Source: Prevotellaceae bacterium KH2P17 | GTDB lineage: Bacteria > Bacteroidota > Bacteroidia > Bacteroidales > Bacteroidaceae | Direction: 5' to 3' | Assembly (NCBI GenBank): GCA_900199655.1 | Contig: FZRE01000001.1 | Location: forward strand, 1-64,000 | Length of the DNA: 64,000 nucleotides | Shown: positions 45,027 through 60,911 of the stretch, piece after piece | Layout: every line of letters begins with the position of its first letter | How positions within the stretch are numbered: the first letter of the stretch is position 1 | Program-made: the position numbers and the translations under genes | The notes under the pieces: generated by a model | What the model was told of the DNA's origin: nothing | What the model saw: only the letters and a program-made list of their open reading frames with translations | Databases searched by the model: none

Positions 45027-46037
45027 TTAGAGGTTCGGGTTTATTTCGCTCCACTTTTCTACCGGTGGCAGGGCGCCGAGGGCGATAACCTGGTCGCGCA
45101 TACCTTGCAGGTGAGCGTAGGATGCGTCGAGAGCAGCAACCTCGTCGGCTGTGCCCTGTACGGGCTTGGTGTACACGCCGTCGGCTGTAATGCGTGTAGG
45201 CATGGCCATCATCACGTGGTTGTAGCGTGCCGTGTCAGCGTAGGTGCCGGCCGGGTAGGTAAATTCCTCACCGCCCATGGCAGCCTCTATCATCTTGACA
45301 GCAAGGTAGGCAGGGCTCTGGAACGAGCTGCGGCGGCGGAGTTCGATAATCTTTGCGCCGCCCTTGGTTACTTCTACCTGCATATCTTTCCATTCATCAG
45401 CGGTCAGACCCTTGCCGTTCACGGTTGCTTTTCCGGCGATAACGTCGGTCAGCTTCACGCCGTCAACGGTGGTGGGCGATGCAAACACGGCCATCTTCTC
45501 ACCGTGTCCGCCGTAGGTGTAGGCGTTCTTTATGGCGGCCTGGCTTACGCCGAAGTGCTTTGCCAGTGCGCCTTTGAGGCGGGTGGAGTCGAGGGCTGCG
45601 AGGGTGGCAACCTGGTTCGGCTTCAGTCCGGAGTGTACGAGGGTTACCAGACCGGTGATGTCGGCCGGGTTGAAGATAACGACGCAGAAGCGTGCATCAG
45701 GGCAGAACTTCTTTATGTTGTCGCCAAGTTCCTCGGCGGCTTTGGAGTTTCCGACGAGCAAATCTTCGCGTGTCATGCCTTCTTTGCGTGGAGCACCGCC
45801 TGAAGAGATGATGTACTTGGCGCCGGTGAAAGCTTCCTTGGGGTCGGTGGTGGCAACGATGTTGGCATCGTCGAAACCGCACTGGCGCATTTCTTCGGCC
45901 ACTCCTTCGGCTGAGAACACGTCGTAAAGGGTGATGTTAGGAGTGAGACCCAGCATCAGAGCTGTCTGGGTCATGTTTGAACCAATCATGCCGGCAGCAC
46001 CGACGATGACGAGTTTGTCGTTAGTTAAGTATCCCAT
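45027..46037 (-). CDS. mdh: malate dehydrogenase
   Basis: 336 residues. It oxidises malate to oxaloacetate with NAD; in Bacteroidales the reaction runs mainly in reverse, toward fumarate and succinate. Seen: the Rossmann nucleotide loop IVGAAGMIGSNM (about 10-21), ARFCVVIFNPADIT, and the catalytic region TYGGHGEKMAVF with its His. The family is the Bacteroidetes type, close in style to lactate/malate dehydrogenases. The promoter lies in the DNA duplicated next to the KilA-N gene (TAACTTTG on the minus strand at 46119-46126). Confidence 0.95.
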   Translation of the reverse strand: MGYLTNDKLVIVGAAGMIGSNMTQTALMLGLTPNITLYDVFSAEGVAEEMRQCGFDDANIVATTDPKEAFTGAKYIISSGGAPRKEGMTREDLLVGNSKAAEELGDNIKKFCPDARFCVVIFNPADITGLVTLVHSGLKPNQVATLAALDSTRLKGALAKHFGVSQAAIKNAYTYGGHGEKMAVFASPTTVDGVKLTDVIAGKATVNGKGLTADEWKDMQVEVTKGGAKIIELRRRSSFQSPAYLAVKMIEAAMGGEEFTYPAGTYADTARYNHVMMAMPTRITADGVYTKPVQGTADEVAALDASYAHLQGMRDQVIALGALPPVEKWSEINPNL

Positions 46038-46118
46038 AACTTTTAATTATTTAAAGTTTTAAATTAAAATCTTCCGCTTTCACGCGTCGCCTTGTCGCCT
46101 CTTGGCAGCTTGGCACCG

Positions 46119-46126
46119 CAAAGTTA
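46119..46126 (-). promoter_or_regulatory. -7 promoter element TAACTTTG of mdh (minus strand)
   Basis: A TAnnTTTG match, 81 bases before the mdh start. It is the first element of the 117-bp duplicated segment; its duplicate at 47284-47291 is placed to drive the KilA-N gene. No clear -33 box was found. Confidence 0.5.
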
Positions 46127-46235
46127 ACAAAAAAAGGCGTATCACCGCCATTTCCATTGCTATTAATTTGTGATTAATTCTTAAAAGAGTTATCTTTGTA
46201 ATGTCTAATTATCAAAAAGCCGTATGAATGAGTTT
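46119..46235. repeat. 117-bp direct repeat, left copy
   Basis: It matches 47284-47400 over 117 bp with two mismatches (A/G near 46200 and T/A near 46210). It contains the mdh-facing TAACTTTG element, the pepP-facing promoter (TATCTTTG at 46191-46198) and the first four codons of pepP (MNEF). Left of it is the native mdh leader; right of it the sequence is unrelated to pepP. Confidence 0.95.
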
Positions 46236-46343
46236 CCCGGCCCGAAGGTGTACGGGCGGCGGCTTGAGGCGGAAGAGCCGGCCATGTGGAAATGGCTTCT
46301 CCAAACGCAGGTGAGCCGTGGCTGCCGGCCGGTTTCGGCTTAA
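46224..46343 (+). other. 39-codon chimeric frame fused to the duplicated pepP start
   Basis: Starting at the duplicated pepP ATG, MNEF is followed by 35 unrelated residues (PGPKVYGRRLEAEEPAMWKW...VSA) and a stop at 46341. It has a full copy of the pepP promoter and leader, so it is likely transcribed. It is most simply a by-product of the duplication; there is no evidence that the peptide has a function. Confidence 0.5.
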
Positions 46344-46346
46344 AAA

Positions 46347-46384
46347 GAAACGGGGAGACGATGAACCGGCCGTTTCCCCGTTTC
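46347..46384 (-). terminator. terminator of the KilA-N gene
   Basis: A 10-bp stem GAAACGGGGA (46347-46356) with TCCCCGTTTC (46375-46384). On the minus strand it ends in TTTTT just after the KilA-N stop at 46387. It may also stop transcription from the duplicated pepP promoter. Confidence 0.75.
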
Positions 46385-46386
46385 CT

Positions 46387-47187
46387 TTATTTCAGCAGCT
46401 TCCGGTTATTCGAGTCTTCGAGTACCTGCATTTGCTGAATGGCTATCTGATTGAGACGCAGCAGCCGCTTGCCTTGCGGCAGGCCGTCGTTGATGAGTAC
46501 GGCATTGATGTTTTCCATGTTGGAGAGGCATATCAGCTCGTTGATGGTGGCATAATCGCGTATGTTGCCTTTCAGTTCAGGATTGGCGTCGCGCCATTGC
46601 TTAGCCGTCATGCCGAACATGGCTACGTTCAGCACGTCGGCTTCTTCCGCATAGATGGCTCCGGCTTGTGCCGCCGTGACCTCGGCCGGTATCAGGTGGC
46701 TTTTCACAGCATCGGTATGAATGTGATAGTTGATTTTAGACAGCTCCCTCTTGGCCGTCCATCCAAGCGCTTTCTGTTCCTCCGCCTTCATGCGTTGGTA
46801 CTCCTTGACAAGCAGCAGTTGGAATTTCGGGCTCATCCACATGCCGAAGTGGTAGGCTATGTCACGATGGGCGTAGGTTCCGCCGTAACGTCCGGCTTTG
46901 GAGAAGATGCCTATGGCCCCCGTCTTTTCTATCCAAGTCTTGACAGAGAGCACAAAGTTGTTGCTGCCGGCCATGTTTCTAATTGTACCGAATTCGGTAC
47001 AATTAAAAGCTGGGTTGTATAGTTTTTCCCATTCGCCGAGGTACTCTATGGTGTTCTTCAGGCTGAGCCAGCGGAAGATAATGTGTTCTTGCAGCTGGCT
47101 GCGAGCCATGTCGGTGAGCGAAATATAATCGTCGTCGCGGCGCGAGATGATGCTGATTTCCGTGTTCTGGACTGTGATTTTGGCCAT
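46387..47187 (-). CDS. KilA-N domain protein
   Basis: 266 residues. The N-terminal half is a KilA-N domain (DDDYISLTDMARSQL...IIFRWLSLKNTIEYLGEWEKLYNP...WIEKTGAIGIFSKAGRYGGTYAHRDIAYHFGMWMSPKFQLLLVKEYQRMK). This is a DNA-binding-type domain found in phage and large-virus proteins. The C-terminal half (HYHIHTDAVKSHLIP...AMFGMTAKQWRDANPELKGNIRDYATINELICLSNMENINA) recurs in stand-alone Bacteroidetes KilA-N proteins. No partner phage genes are nearby. The gene sits between two 117-bp copies of the mdh/pepP promoter region and points the same way as mdh. The right copy supplies a TAACTTTG element about 97 bases upstream of its start. Confidence 0.88.
   Translation of the reverse strand: MAKITVQNTEISIISRRDDDYISLTDMARSQLQEHIIFRWLSLKNTIEYLGEWEKLYNPAFNCTEFGTIRNMAGSNNFVLSVKTWIEKTGAIGIFSKAGRYGGTYAHRDIAYHFGMWMSPKFQLLLVKEYQRMKAEEQKALGWTAKRELSKINYHIHTDAVKSHLIPAEVTAAQAGAIYAEEADVLNVAMFGMTAKQWRDANPELKGNIRDYATINELICLSNMENINAVLINDGLPQGKRLLRLNQIAIQQMQVLEDSNNRKLLK
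46980..47005. repeat. 26-bp perfect palindrome within the KilA-N gene
   Basis: Positions 46980-47005 are exactly self-complementary, centred on GAATTC, and also contain GGTACC-like GTACC/GGTAC halves. It encodes FNCTEFGTI in the KilA-N domain. Confidence 0.85.
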
Positions 47188-47283
47188 AGGTTCGTATTTC
47201 TGAAAATAGAGTTTGTTGCAGTTTGCAGGGTTGGTGCAGGTTCCGGTGGGTCAGCATAGGCTGCAAAAGCCGCCGTTATTCTA

Positions 47284-47400
47284 CAAAGTTAACAAAAAAA
47301 GGCGTATCACCGCCATTTCCATTGCTATTAATTTGTGATTAATTCTTAAAAGAGTTATCTTTGTGATGTCTAATAATCAAAAAGCCGTATGAATGAGTTT
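47284..47400. repeat. 117-bp direct repeat, right copy
   Basis: It matches 46119-46235 with two mismatches. It runs from TAACTTTG on the minus strand (47284-47291) to codon 4 of pepP, and so includes the complete functional pepP promoter. Confidence 0.95.
47332..47363 (+). promoter_or_regulatory. pepP promoter
   Basis: TTTG at 47332-47335 and TATCTTTG at 47356-47363, 20 bases apart, 25 bases before the pepP ATG. An identical copy lies at 46167-46198. Confidence 0.75.
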
Positions 47401-49176
47401 GTAACCGAAAGAATAGCTAAAATCAGGGAAATCATGCAGCGGGAAAGCCTCGGAGCGTTTGTTTTTCCGAGTACGGATCCGCACAACAGCGAGTACGTTT
47501 GCGACCACTGGAAAGGCCGCGAGTGGATATCAGGCTTCAATGGGTCGGCCGGCACGGCCGTTGTTACCATGCACTCGGCCGCTCTGTGGACCGATTCGCG
47601 CTACTTCCTTGCCGCCGCCGAGCAGCTGGAAGGCACGGAATTCCAGCTCATGAAGCTGAAGGTGGAGGGCACGCCCACCATTGCCGAGTGGATAGGCAGT
47701 GAGCTGCAGGGCGGCGGGTTGACCGAGGTGGGGCTCGACGGGATGGTGAACAGCTACGCGTTCGTACAGCAACTTACGGCCGACTTGCGCCATCAAGGCG
47801 GCCTCACCCTACGTACCAACCTCGATCCTCTTGCCCTCGCATGGGCCGACAGGCCTGCCCTGCCTGCCAATAAGGTGGAAATCCAGCCCCTGGAATATGC
47901 CGGCGAGGACACCCGCTCCAAACTGCAGCGCCTGCGCAAGGCCCTGCGCAGCCGCCATGCCGACGGCATGCTGGTGGCTGCCCTCGACGACATAGCCTGG
48001 CTGCTCAACCTCCGCGGCACCGATGTTCATTGCAATCCCGTGTTCGTTTCCTATCTCCTTGTCTCCACGAACCGTGTCACCTTATATATAAATAAGGAGA
48101 AACTAACGGCCGAGGTGGTGGCCTATCTGCAAGCGCAAGGGGTGGAGACCGACGACTACAGCCGCGTATCAGCAGGGCTGAAGGACTACGGCGAGTACAA
48201 TATCCTCATCGACCCACAGGCCACCAACTACACGCTTACCAAGTTGGTGAAGTGCCCCGAGGTTGTCCATGCACCCTCGCCGGTGCCCGAGATGAAGTGT
48301 GTGAAGAACCCCACAGAGATAAACGGCTTTCGCAACGCCATGCTCCGTGACGGCATAGCGATGGTTCAGTTCCTGAGATGGCTGCCATCCGCCGTGGCTG
48401 CAGGTGGCCAGACGGAGCTTTCAGTAGATCGTATGCTCACCTCGCTGCGCCGCAGTCAGCCCCTTTTTCGCGACATTTCGTTCGATACCATTGCCGCCTA
48501 TCAGGAGCACGGAGCCATCGTCCATTACGAGGCAACGCCTGCAACAGACGTGCCGCTACGGCCCGAGGGCTTCCTGCTTCTTGACAGCGGAGCGCAGTAT
48601 CAGGACGGAACAACCGACATTACGCGCACCATTCCGCTCGGCCCTCTTACCGACGAGCAGCGCCACATCTACACCCTCGTGCTCAAGGGGCACATCCGGC
48701 TGGAGCTTGCCAAGTTCCCCGATGGCGCCACGGGCACGCAGATTGATGCCCTGGCCCGCGAGACCATGTGGCGCGAAGGCCTCAACTACTTGCACGGAAC
48801 GGGCCACGGAGTGGGCAGCTACCTGTGCGTTCACGAGGGCCCTCACCAGATACGGATGGAGTACATGCCCACACCGTTGCGCAGCGGCATGACCGTTACC
48901 GACGAGCCCGGCATCTATCTGGCCGGCCGCTTCGGCGTGCGGATAGAGAACACCCTGCTCATAACCGATTACAAGGAGACCGAGTTCGGCCGCTTCCTGC
49001 AGCTGGAGCCGCTCACGCTGTGCCCCATCAGCACCGCGCCCATTGACCGCCGGCTGCTTTTACAGGAAGAAATCGACTGGCTGAACAGCTACCACCGCAT
49101 GGTCAACGAGCGGCTCTCGCCCTATCTCTCGGCCGATGAGAAAGCGTGGCTCGATGAAGCCACGCGTGCAATCTGA
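47389..49176 (+). CDS. aminopeptidase P family protein (M24 Xaa-Pro aminopeptidase, long form)
   Basis: 595 residues, the long three-domain APP1-like form. Two creatinase-like N-terminal domains (about 5-300) precede the M24 pita-bread domain (about 310-530) and a C-terminal extension. Metal ligands are all present: D399 and D410 (LLLDSG...GTTDITRT), H473 (GTGHGVGSYL), E506 (TDEPGIYL) and E520 (RIENTLL). It removes an N-terminal residue before proline. There is no signal peptide, so it is cytoplasmic. Its promoter, leader and codons 1-4 are duplicated 1165 bp upstream, beyond the KilA-N gene, showing that DNA was inserted at its 5' end without breaking it. A short terminator follows. Confidence 0.95.
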   Translation: MNEFVTERIAKIREIMQRESLGAFVFPSTDPHNSEYVCDHWKGREWISGFNGSAGTAVVTMHSAALWTDSRYFLAAAEQLEGTEFQLMKLKVEGTPTIAEWIGSELQGGGLTEVGLDGMVNSYAFVQQLTADLRHQGGLTLRTNLDPLALAWADRPALPANKVEIQPLEYAGEDTRSKLQRLRKALRSRHADGMLVAALDDIAWLLNLRGTDVHCNPVFVSYLLVSTNRVTLYINKEKLTAEVVAYLQAQGVETDDYSRVSAGLKDYGEYNILIDPQATNYTLTKLVKCPEVVHAPSPVPEMKCVKNPTEINGFRNAMLRDGIAMVQFLRWLPSAVAAGGQTELSVDRMLTSLRRSQPLFRDISFDTIAAYQEHGAIVHYEATPATDVPLRPEGFLLLDSGAQYQDGTTDITRTIPLGPLTDEQRHIYTLVLKGHIRLELAKFPDGATGTQIDALARETMWREGLNYLHGTGHGVGSYLCVHEGPHQIRMEYMPTPLRSGMTVTDEPGIYLAGRFGVRIENTLLITDYKETEFGRFLQLEPLTLCPISTAPIDRRLLLQEEIDWLNSYHRMVNERLSPYLSADEKAWLDEATRAI

Positions 49177-59316: not shown

Positions 59317-59337
59317 CTTCAGTAGAATCAATGTTTT

Positions 59338-59410
59338 GCGGAAATAGCTCAGTTGATAGAGCACTAGCCTTCCAAGCTGGGGGTCGCGGGTTTGAGTCCC
59401 GTTTTCCGCT
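59338..59410 (+). tRNA. tRNA-Gly (TCC)
   Basis: 73 nt, acceptor GCGGAAA/TTTCCGC, anticodon loop CTTCCAA giving TCC. Confidence 0.97.
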
Positions 59411-59420
59411 CTAAATCAAT

Positions 59421-59492
<72 letters not shown>

Positions 59493-59574
59493 CTACTTCG
59501 GTTCTATCTGATAGGCAGAAGAAAAACAAGAATTTAATTTCAGATTATTCATTATATAAATAAAAAGTAAAGCT

Positions 59575-60774
59575 ATGGCTAAAGAGACATTTCAGCGTAC
59601 CAAACCACATGTTAACATTGGTACTATTGGTCATGTTGACCACGGTAAGACTACTTTGACAGCTGCAATCTCTAAGGTTCTTCACGACAAGGGCTTTGGT
59701 GGTGAGGATGTTAAGTCATTCGACCAGATTGACAACGCTCCCGAGGAGAAGGAACGCGGTATTACGATTAACTCTTCTCACATTGAGTATGAGACTGCAA
59801 AGCGTCACTATGCGCACGTAGACTGTCCGGGACACGCCGACTATGTGAAGAACATGGTTACTGGTGCTGCTCAGATGGACGGTGCTATTCTGGTAGTTGC
59901 TGCTACTGATGGCCCTATGCCACAGACACGTGAGCACGTACTTCTCGCCCGTCAGGTAAACGTACCTCGTCTGGTTGTATTCCTGAACAAGTGTGACCTC
60001 GTTGAGGATGAGGAAATGTTGGAGCTCGTTGAAATGGAGCTTCAGGAGCTTCTCGCTCAGTACGACTACGAAGAGGATACTCCTATCATTCGCGGTTCTG
60101 CACTCGGTGCACTGAACGATGTTGAAAAGTGGGTTGACTCTGTAATGAAACTGATGGACACCGTTGACGAGTGGATTCAGGAGCCTGTACGTGAGGTTGA
60201 CAAGCCTTTCTTGATGCCTGTTGAGGATGTATTCTCTATCACCGGTCGTGGCACCGTTGTTACCGGCCGTATTGAGACTGGTAAGTGCAAGATTGGTGAT
60301 GAAATCCAGCTGCTCGGTCTTGGTGAAGATAAGAAGTCGGTTATCACTGGCGTTGAAATGTTCCGCAAGATCCTTGACGAGGGTGAAGCTGGCGACAACG
60401 TAGGTCTGCTGCTCCGCGGTGTAGACAAGGATGAGGTTAAGCGTGGTATGGTTGTTGTGCACCCGGGTGCCATCACTCCGCACGATCACTTCAAGGCTTC
60501 GGTTTACGTGCTGAAGAAAGAAGAAGGCGGCCGTCACACTCCGTTCGGCAACAAGTATCGTCCGCAGTTCTACCTCCGCACGATGGATTGCACCGGCGAA
60601 ATCAAACTTCCGGAGGGAGTGGAAATGGTTATGCCTGGTGACAACGTAGAGATTGAGGTCTCCTTGATTTACAAGGTGGCTCTGAATGAGGGTCTTCGTT
60701 TTGCTATCCGCGAGGGTGGTCGAACTGTAGGCTCCGGTCAGATTACAGCTATCCTCGACGACGTTCAGCAGTAA
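59575..60774 (+). CDS. tuf: elongation factor Tu
   Basis: 399 residues. It delivers aminoacyl-tRNA to the ribosome with GTP. The P loop GHVDHGKT, the DCPGHADY switch region and NKCD base motif are all present, followed by the two beta-barrel domains ([13 protein letters not shown]...). Codon choice (many T-ending codons) differs from the GC-rich neighbours to the left, as expected of a highly expressed gene. It is transcribed with the four upstream tRNAs and ends in a terminator just before tRNA-Trp. Confidence 0.98.
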
Positions 60775-60804
60775 TTCTGAATAAGTTCAAGTATACATAC
60801 ACTC

Positions 60805-60838
60805 AAGTTCCCGCAACTGCGGTTACGGGAACTTTTTT
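60805..60838 (+). terminator. terminator after tuf
   Basis: A 9-bp stem AAGTTCCCG (60805-60813) with CGGGAACTT (60826-60834), then a T run that ends at the first base of tRNA-Trp. Confidence 0.85.
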
Positions 60839-60911
60839 ACGGGTTTAGCTCAGTTGGTAGAGCACTGGTCTCCAAAACCAGGTGTCGAGAGTTCGAGTCT
60901 TTCAACCCGTG
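60839..60911 (+). tRNA. tRNA-Trp (CCA)
   Basis: 73 nt, acceptor ACGGGTT/AACCCGT, anticodon stem CTGGT/ACCAG and loop CTCCAAA giving CCA. It directly precedes secE, as in many bacteria. Confidence 0.97.

What the first reader, a model, noticed from the sequence alone, without database searches (positions are those of the whole stretch)
46119..47400. KilA-N gene bracketed by a duplicated bidirectional promoter
117 bp are repeated with two mismatches at 46119 and 47284. The repeat runs from the mdh-facing TAACTTTG element to codon 4 of pepP, so it is the whole mdh/pepP promoter region. Between the copies lies one KilA-N gene with its own terminator. The right copy keeps pepP intact and can drive KilA-N; the left copy keeps mdh intact. 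This looks like an insertion that rebuilds the target promoter on both sides, as integrative elements do with tRNA ends, but here only a single gene is carried and no integrase is present.
Basis: partly seen in the sequence, partly recalled or inferred. Interest (0 to 1): 0.8.

Follow-up and report, generated by a model that had tools for sequence, protein, structure and literature searches.

The report
Lone defence-type gene with duplicated target
A single gene of a suspected virus-defence family appears to have been inserted between two housekeeping genes of a Prevotella-type bacterium without carrying any transposase, copying 117 bases of the landing site to both sides, and the same signature recurs around some similar lone genes in related bacteria.

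Summary
A 117-bp repeat (115 identical) flanks a 1,048-bp insert holding one KilA-N gene. Of 31 relatives checked, 19 have mdh directly beside pepP and none has KilA-N there. Left flank + one copy + right flank is the native layout, so this is an insertion with an exact target duplication. The only Bacteroidetes-type -7 motifs in the region are the four in the two copies; KilA-N's likely promoter is the duplicated mdh promoter.

It is not unique. Clean flanking repeats (23-228 bp, different at each site) occur at 20 of 156 KilA-N, 5 of 46 RhuM and 8 of 47 DUF1016 loci, but at 0 of 29 four-helix (PF05635) loci, 0 of 30 pepP loci and 5 of 765 ORFs of a congeneric genome. The tested members of the three positive families match PADLOC PDC-S22, PDC-S05 and PDC-S02, unvalidated phage-defence candidates.

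[quoted passage not shown] pylori. This is a new variant, with non-RM lone genes as cargo. The joining mechanism is inferred; about 87% of these loci show no clean repeat.

The parts
46119..46235 (.). left copy of the 117-bp target duplication; serves mdh
47284..47400 (.). right copy of the duplication; serves pepP and probably (minus strand) KilA-N
46236..47283 (.). inserted segment, 1,048 bp; KilA-N is absent from this site in 31 of 31 relatives examined
46387..47187 (-). KilA-N gene, 266 aa; PADLOC PDC-S22 (E 1.7e-126)
46343..46388 (-). terminator-like hairpin directly after the KilA-N stop codon
   Evidence: (I2)
47284..47291 (-). TAACTTTG -7 motif of the duplicated mdh promoter, flush with the insert; the only consensus -7 motif found upstream of KilA-N
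46119..46126 (-). TAACTTTG -7 motif of the mdh promoter (left copy)
47333..47363 (+). TTG ... TATCTTTG promoter-like element of pepP (right copy)
46168..46198 (+). same pepP promoter-like element in the left copy, now pointing at the KilA-N terminator
46224..46343 (+). 39-codon chimeric reading frame: pepP codons 1-4 joined to insert sequence; no PHROG family match
46236..46342 (.). 67% GC tail of the insert beyond the terminator, possibly carried over from an earlier site; the stretch 46236-46390 matches only the own genome among 398 congeneric genomes
45027..46037 (-). mdh (malate dehydrogenase), intact
47389..49176 (+). pepP-like M24 aminopeptidase, intact

Best explanation
A lone KilA-N gene of the PADLOC PDC-S22 family was inserted into the mdh-pepP divergent promoter region, and the insertion duplicated 117 bp of the target. 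Shown: the insertion (empty sites in congeners), the exact duplication, the intact neighbours, and the recurrence at other sites and in two other lone-gene families. Inferred: the right copy's mdh promoter now transcribes KilA-N; the duplication arose because a short DNA fragment was joined into a staggered break (two nicks, or a gap, tens to about 230 nt apart) whose single strands were then filled in, or by an equivalent template switch during replication; selection kept the events in which both neighbours stayed whole and the incoming gene was expressed. The insert carries no transposase. The two 117-bp copies should let homologous recombination loop the gene out again and restore the original site (not tested).
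For: Exact flush junctions and 98% identical copies. In 31 relatives KilA-N is at the site in none and mdh is beside pepP in 19; the flanks plus one copy reproduce the native order of G024. At both mismatches the left copy carries the base seen in G024 and G069. Second site: a 201-bp duplication of an exonuclease-family gene's 3' end in L104; of 8 congeners looked at (of 30 loci fetched), KilA-N is absent in 7, including G077 and G089 whose protein is 91% identical; the eighth, G004, carries a truncated KilA-N at the same left junction. Recurrence with controls: 20/156, 5/46 and 8/47 against 5/765, 0/30 and 0/29 (Fisher against 5/765: 3e-12, 1e-4, 7e-8); in-locus control intervals 3/260 against 17/72. 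None of the 33 remaining cases has a second copy of the gene family in its locus. The inserts are gene-limited: 3' flank at most 25 bp in 16 of 33 (without L184).
Against: 136 of 156 KilA-N loci have no clean repeat (126 none at all). In ten pairs of similar KilA-N genes in different contexts (20 tests, 18 distinct loci) a duplication flush with the end of homology was found in one, L129. The empty sites are from other species, not strains of the same species. The joining mechanism was not tested. The ORF control is a single congener, while the gene loci come from many families, and PF05635 is the only lone-gene negative.
Confidence: 0.8

Rival explanations
1. Single-crossover integration of a circle: KilA-N with one copy of the target piece (looped out of another strain's repeat-flanked allele) recombined with the homologous mdh/pepP region of a naive strain. 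This is the 'circular product' model proposed for transposed Arabidopsis genes.
For: Near-identical copies are what such an integration leaves; the model is argued in PMC2869330. It could spread an existing allele within a species. In G004 and L104 the same exonuclease/KilA-N junction is shared by two lineages.
Against: It does not explain the first arrival at each of the different sites, where no donor with matching flanks was found; the insert's tail matches nothing but the own genome among 398 congeneric genomes.
Confidence: 0.2
2. Integrase-type integration with the 117 bp as an att duplication, the integrase supplied in trans.
For: Rebuilt target on both sides and a small cargo.
Against: No recombinase gene in the insert (the rest of the genome was not searched for one); no common core seen among the clean repeats, whose length varies from 23 to 228 bp.
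Confidence: 0.03
3. Retroposition: a KilA-N transcript was reverse-transcribed into a nicked target, giving a variable-length duplication as LINE-type elements do (comparison recalled).
For: Variable long duplications fit; in the window the insert begins flush with a -7 motif.
Against: The insert runs about 107 bp past the terminator hairpin; in other cases insert ends lie inside the ORF, or promoter-like motifs upstream of the gene are included in the insert.
Confidence: 0.05
4. KilA-N is ancestral here and the repeat arose later by tandem duplication, or the repeat is an assembly artefact.
For: One draft genome holds this exact arrangement.
Against: KilA-N absent at the site in 31 of 31 relatives; the copies differ by two substitutions and lie inside a 322-kb contig; the same pattern occurs in other assemblies.
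Confidence: 0.03

Closest known systems
Insertion with long target duplication (Nobusato, Uchiyama, Ohashi, Kobayashi 2000, Gene 259:99), restriction-modification genes of Helicobacter pylori. Original paper not seen; known here through passages of PMC1643837 and PMC3031569.
   Same: Genes inserted with a long, variable direct repeat of the target that is single in a related genome; cargo is a DNA-defence gene.
   Different: Cargo is one KilA-N gene (RhuM and DUF1016 genes elsewhere), not an RM complex; host group is Bacteroidales; the duplicated target can supply a promoter, start codon or stop codon to the incoming gene.
Transposed genes of Arabidopsis with flanking direct repeats (Woodhouse et al. 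2010, PMC2869330; abstract and two sections read)
   Same: Single genes at new sites, flanked by direct repeats homologous to the target site of the relative; a rate of the same order (22 of 126 with repeats over 15 bp, against 6 of 102 controls).
   Different: Plant genome; the authors favour circle excision and homologous reinsertion, some repeats being shared with the donor site.
PADLOC PDC-S22 / Pfam KilA-N (PF04383) lone genes
   Same: Same family over nearly the whole length (E 1.7e-126); the model's N-terminal domain resembles the Mbp1 DNA-binding domain (Z 7.2, rmsd 2.7, 82 aligned).
   Different: PDC entries are treated as unvalidated, and none of my paper searches showed a mobility mechanism for them.

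Membership tests
Insertion with long target duplication | insert flanked by a long direct repeat of target sequence | tested here: met
   117 bp, 98%
Insertion with long target duplication | related genome has the site empty with one copy | tested here: met
   species-level relatives, not strains
Insertion with long target duplication | repeat length and sequence vary from site to site | tested here: met
   33 clean cases, 23-228 bp
Insertion with long target duplication | restriction-modification genes as cargo (as first described) | tested here: not met
   cargo is KilA-N / PDC-S22; hence 'variant', not member
Insertion with long target duplication | presence/absence polymorphism between strains of one species | not testable with these tools
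   one genome per species held
tRNA-type integrative elements (tyrosine recombinase) | element encodes an integrase | tested here: not met
   the insert's one recognisable gene is KilA-N
tRNA-type integrative elements (tyrosine recombinase) | common att core at different insertions | tested here: not met
   junctions read by eye, no formal motif search
Insertion sequence / DNA transposon | terminal inverted repeats | tested here: not met
   none of 16 bp or more at the insert ends; a 9-bp inverted match lies 21 and 8 bp inside them
Insertion sequence / DNA transposon | short, fixed-length target duplication | tested here: not met
   117 bp here; 23-228 bp elsewhere
PDC-S22 single-gene phage-defence candidate | profile match over the whole protein | tested here: met
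   E 1.7e-126, residues 3-264
PDC-S22 single-gene phage-defence candidate | protects against phage | not testable with these tools
   needs plating experiments

The most novel reading that the evidence does not exclude
Single-gene phage-defence candidates of Bacteroidales (PDC-S22 KilA-N, PDC-S05 RhuM, PDC-S02 DUF1016) form a class of bare mobile genes. They spread as little more than an open reading frame through a transposase-free pathway that opens the target with staggered nicks up to about 230 bp apart and borrows promoter, start or stop codon from the duplicated target, possibly helped by the gene's own DNA-binding or nuclease product.
Probability: 0.2. Interest if true: 0.85.

Novelty: new variant of a known kind. 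Interest (0 to 1): 0.6.

Why it matters
How lone defence genes move without a transposase or integrase is open. The signature described for H. pylori restriction-modification genes is found here, with controls, around three non-RM defence-candidate families across Bacteroidales. It gives a computable mark of arrivals, a way to date them (divergence of the copies), sites where the empty allele should regenerate by recombination, and a direct experimental question: what opens the target. It also shows how an incoming gene can land in a core operon or divergent promoter while both neighbours stay whole.

Tried and rejected
Literature: searches listed no paper whose listing concerned mobility of KilA-N, RhuM or DUF1016 lone genes with flanking repeats (searches returned nothing). 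One pipeline paper, PMC10782964, lists RhuM and DUF1016 among transferred genes (passages). One search found 'long target duplication' in 19 papers; passages of seven were read, in two of which (PMC3874152, PMC2654758) the phrase is only in the reference list. The 2010 NAR paper on mobile RM forms is not held.

Rejected repeats: L005 and L026 are REP-like palindrome clusters; L100 is a tandem KilA-N array; the four IVP cases and KilA-N L083, L112, L119 are internally repetitive, and L096, L115, L118, L156, L361 have a third copy in the locus. Two RhuM cases were taken out by hand after the automatic filter: L194, whose right copy is at the very contig end, and L184, which has a second RhuM gene in the locus. 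That changes RhuM from 7 of 47 to 5 of 46. Use of target start or stop codons (start inside the left copy in L129, L357, L241, L248, L384) cannot be told from chance microhomology in most cases.

Dropped before the counts: seven fragmentary relatives' hits (L024, L026-L031). Of 170 KilA-N loci given, 2 were duplicates and 12 too short; 3 of 50 RhuM, 3 of 50 DUF1016 and 1 of 30 IVP were too short.

Searches for an empty site at L357 and L384 failed: each genus holds two genomes. A donor for the insert tail was not found (the 39-aa frame has no PHROG). Short duplications at the ends of homology of ten KilA-N pairs: 1 of 20 tests. In one relative, L047, mdh lies about 1.4 kb from pepP with a 321-aa frame between; no KilA-N and no long direct repeat there. 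The first structure model was poor (pLDDT 47); the second is usable (79). No Foldseek match at E <= 0.001. In the second look Mbp1 (Z 7.2) and DdrC of D. radiodurans (Z 6.0, rmsd 6.3, 159 aligned) appear, in the range that the tool calls common, so no function is drawn from DdrC.

Full report
OBSERVATION. The 117-bp direct repeat 46119-46235 / 47284-47400 is there, with substitutions at two positions. A search of the own genome (3.30 Mb, 40 contigs) finds only these two copies. The copies start at the -7 motif TAACTTTG that faces mdh on the minus strand and end with codon 4 of pepP. Between them lie 1,048 bp with one recognisable gene, 46387-47187 on the minus strand, 266 aa, KilA-N E 4e-22, followed at once by a strong hairpin with a T run. 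mdh and pepP are intact. It is of one genus with G004, whose exonuclease region is 91-94% identical to that of L104, a record titled 'uncultured Prevotellaceae bacterium', hence 'Prevotella-type' (inference).

EMPTY SITE. pepP was found in 88 of 100 congeners and 30 loci were fetched. Leaving out the own one and adding two more genomes gives 31 relatives: 19 have a whole mdh directly next to pepP, one has mdh about 1.4 kb away with another frame between, 11 have no mdh within the fetched 1.5 kb, and none has KilA-N there. In the closest (G024, mdh 87.5% identical) the intergenic region aligns as left flank + one copy + right flank. At both positions where the copies differ, the left copy carries the base seen in G024 and G069. 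The layout is therefore an insertion with an exact duplication of the target.

EXPRESSION. A scan of 46030-47450 for the Bacteroidetes -7 motif TAnnTTTG (motif recalled, not from a call) finds four hits, two per copy, and none inside the insert. The one in the right copy facing KilA-N is flush with the insert, so KilA-N most likely starts from a second mdh promoter. The left copy's pepP promoter now reads into a 39-codon chimeric frame and the KilA-N terminator. These are inferences from sequence.

RECURRENCE. A scan of genome contigs kept 80 named KilA-N loci out of 562 relatives. Seventeen of 72 testable ones had direct repeats within 500 bp on both sides, against 3 of 260 control intervals in the same loci. 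A stricter test on more loci used the ORF plus 500 bp on each side, at least 20 bp, E < 1e-4; 'clean' means not internally repetitive and with no third copy in the locus. It gave: KilA-N 30 any / 20 clean of 156; RhuM 8 / 7 of 47; DUF1016 12 / 8 of 47; four-helix PF05635 4 / 0 of 29; pepP 0 / 0 of 30. Two RhuM cases were removed afterwards, L194 (copy at a contig end) and L184 (a second RhuM gene in the locus), leaving 5 of 46; none of the KilA-N or DUF1016 cases has such a second gene. In 1.2 Mb of the complete congener G016 the figures are 8 any / 5 clean of 765 ORFs of at least 150 aa. Fisher tests against 5 of 765: KilA-N 3e-12, DUF1016 7e-8, RhuM 1e-4; PF05635 1.0. The 33 repeats are 23-228 bp, 77-100% identical, each from its own site.

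WHAT IS DUPLICATED. Sites are often ordinary genes: the 3' end of an exonuclease/endonuclease-family gene (L104, 201 bp), the region from the end of a BatA-like VWA gene to the start of a TPR gene (L236, 80 bp, 98.75%), the junction of an N6-methylase gene and a type I specificity gene (L384), beside a RelA-like gene (L025), and before a histidyl-tRNA synthetase (L115, repeats partly low-complexity and not counted as clean). In L357 (107 bp, 100%) KilA-N is joined to the first eight codons of the following Bro-N gene. In L384 the DUF1016 gene takes its start codon region from the left copy and its stop codon from the right one. At the L104 site, KilA-N is absent in 7 of 8 congeners looked at (of 30 loci fetched), and in G089 the exonuclease gene is followed by a terminator-like sequence resembling the one after L104's right copy. 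G004, the eighth, shares the left junction with a truncated KilA-N and has no right copy in the stretch held. In L104 the two copies share bases that G004 and the others lack, although G004 shares the junction; conversion between the copies or exchange between lineages would explain this, and I did not resolve it.

WHAT THE GENES ARE. The window protein matches PADLOC PDC-S22 (E 1.7e-126), as do two other KilA-N proteins tested; the three tested DUF1016 and two tested RhuM proteins match PDC-S02 and PDC-S05; the two tested PF05635 proteins match nothing. PDC means PADLOC defence candidate and is treated as unvalidated in a recent paper (PMC12813430, passages). RhuM, DUF1016 and PF05635 were picked as lone-gene comparison families before the PADLOC scans, so the coincidence was not selected for; but PF05635 is the only lone-gene negative, so 'defence-specific' is not established. 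An orphan DUF6169 gene in G016 with a 43-bp repeat has no PADLOC match, which speaks for a wider route. Relatives of the KilA-N protein occur in 13 phage records and 25 plasmid records. A model with 52 sequences (pLDDT 79) shows a KilA-N domain like Mbp1 (Z 7.2, rmsd 2.7, 82 aligned) plus a helical C-terminal part; an overall resemblance to DdrC (Z 6.0, rmsd 6.3) is within the range that the tool calls common.

MECHANISM. The inserts are gene-limited: 592-1,454 bp for KilA-N, and 16 of the 33 clean inserts end within 25 bp of the stop codon or before it. No shared ends were seen, and the window insert has no terminal inverted repeats and no enzyme of its own. That argues against transposons and integrases. 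The tail beyond the terminator in the window, and ends inside ORFs elsewhere, argue against retroposition of a transcript. A staggered break or gap filled in around a captured fragment, or a template switch, accounts for variable, exact, target-derived duplications; this is inference. The circular-product model could explain spread within a species.

AGAINST. 136 of 156 KilA-N loci have no clean repeat. In 20 tests on ten pairs of similar KilA-N genes (18 loci), one shows a flush duplication. So either old repeats decay, or other routes (larger elements, homologous exchange) carry most copies. Strain-level empty sites are lacking. Some of the shorter or more diverged repeats (e.g. L077, L125, L160) may be chance.

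KNOWN OR NEW. 'Insertion with long target duplication' was described for RM genes from two H. pylori genomes (Nobusato et al. 2000, cited in PMC1643837 and PMC3031569; passages). [quoted passage not shown] Arabidopsis shows an analogue (PMC2869330; abstract and two sections read). None of my searches showed it for KilA-N, RhuM or DUF1016 genes or for Bacteroidales; most subscription papers are not covered. Verdict: new variant of a known kind.

Noticed in passing
L297:19300-19794 (G016): A lone DUF6169 gene in a 794-bp insert flanked by a 43-bp, 93% direct repeat; the clearest single-gene case among five low-copy repeat pairs in 1.2 Mb of G016. No PADLOC match.
   Followed up: partly
L218, L226, L227, L230: Lone four-helix-bundle (PF05635) genes sit inside internally repetitive, low-complexity sequence, a different pattern from target duplication.
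   Followed up: partly
L005:1296-2690; L026:1295-1759: KilA-N genes among REP-like palindromes (GATCAGGGGACGGTTCTGTGATCA and CTCACAAGGGGTCTGACACTTTGTGAG); in L026 a KilA-N fragment lies between copies of the palindrome.
   Followed up: no
L384:1391-2691: A DUF1016 (PDC-S02) gene inserted at the junction of a type I RM methylase gene (PF02384) and specificity gene (PF01420), with a 78-bp duplication supplying its start and stop codons.
   Followed up: partly
L100 (Barnesiella sp. WM24): Tandem array of KilA-N genes with near-identical intergenic regions.
   Followed up: no
window 59334-60899: 65-bp, 75% direct repeat around tuf is a pair of tRNA genes (Gly and Trp); ordinary.
   Followed up: yes
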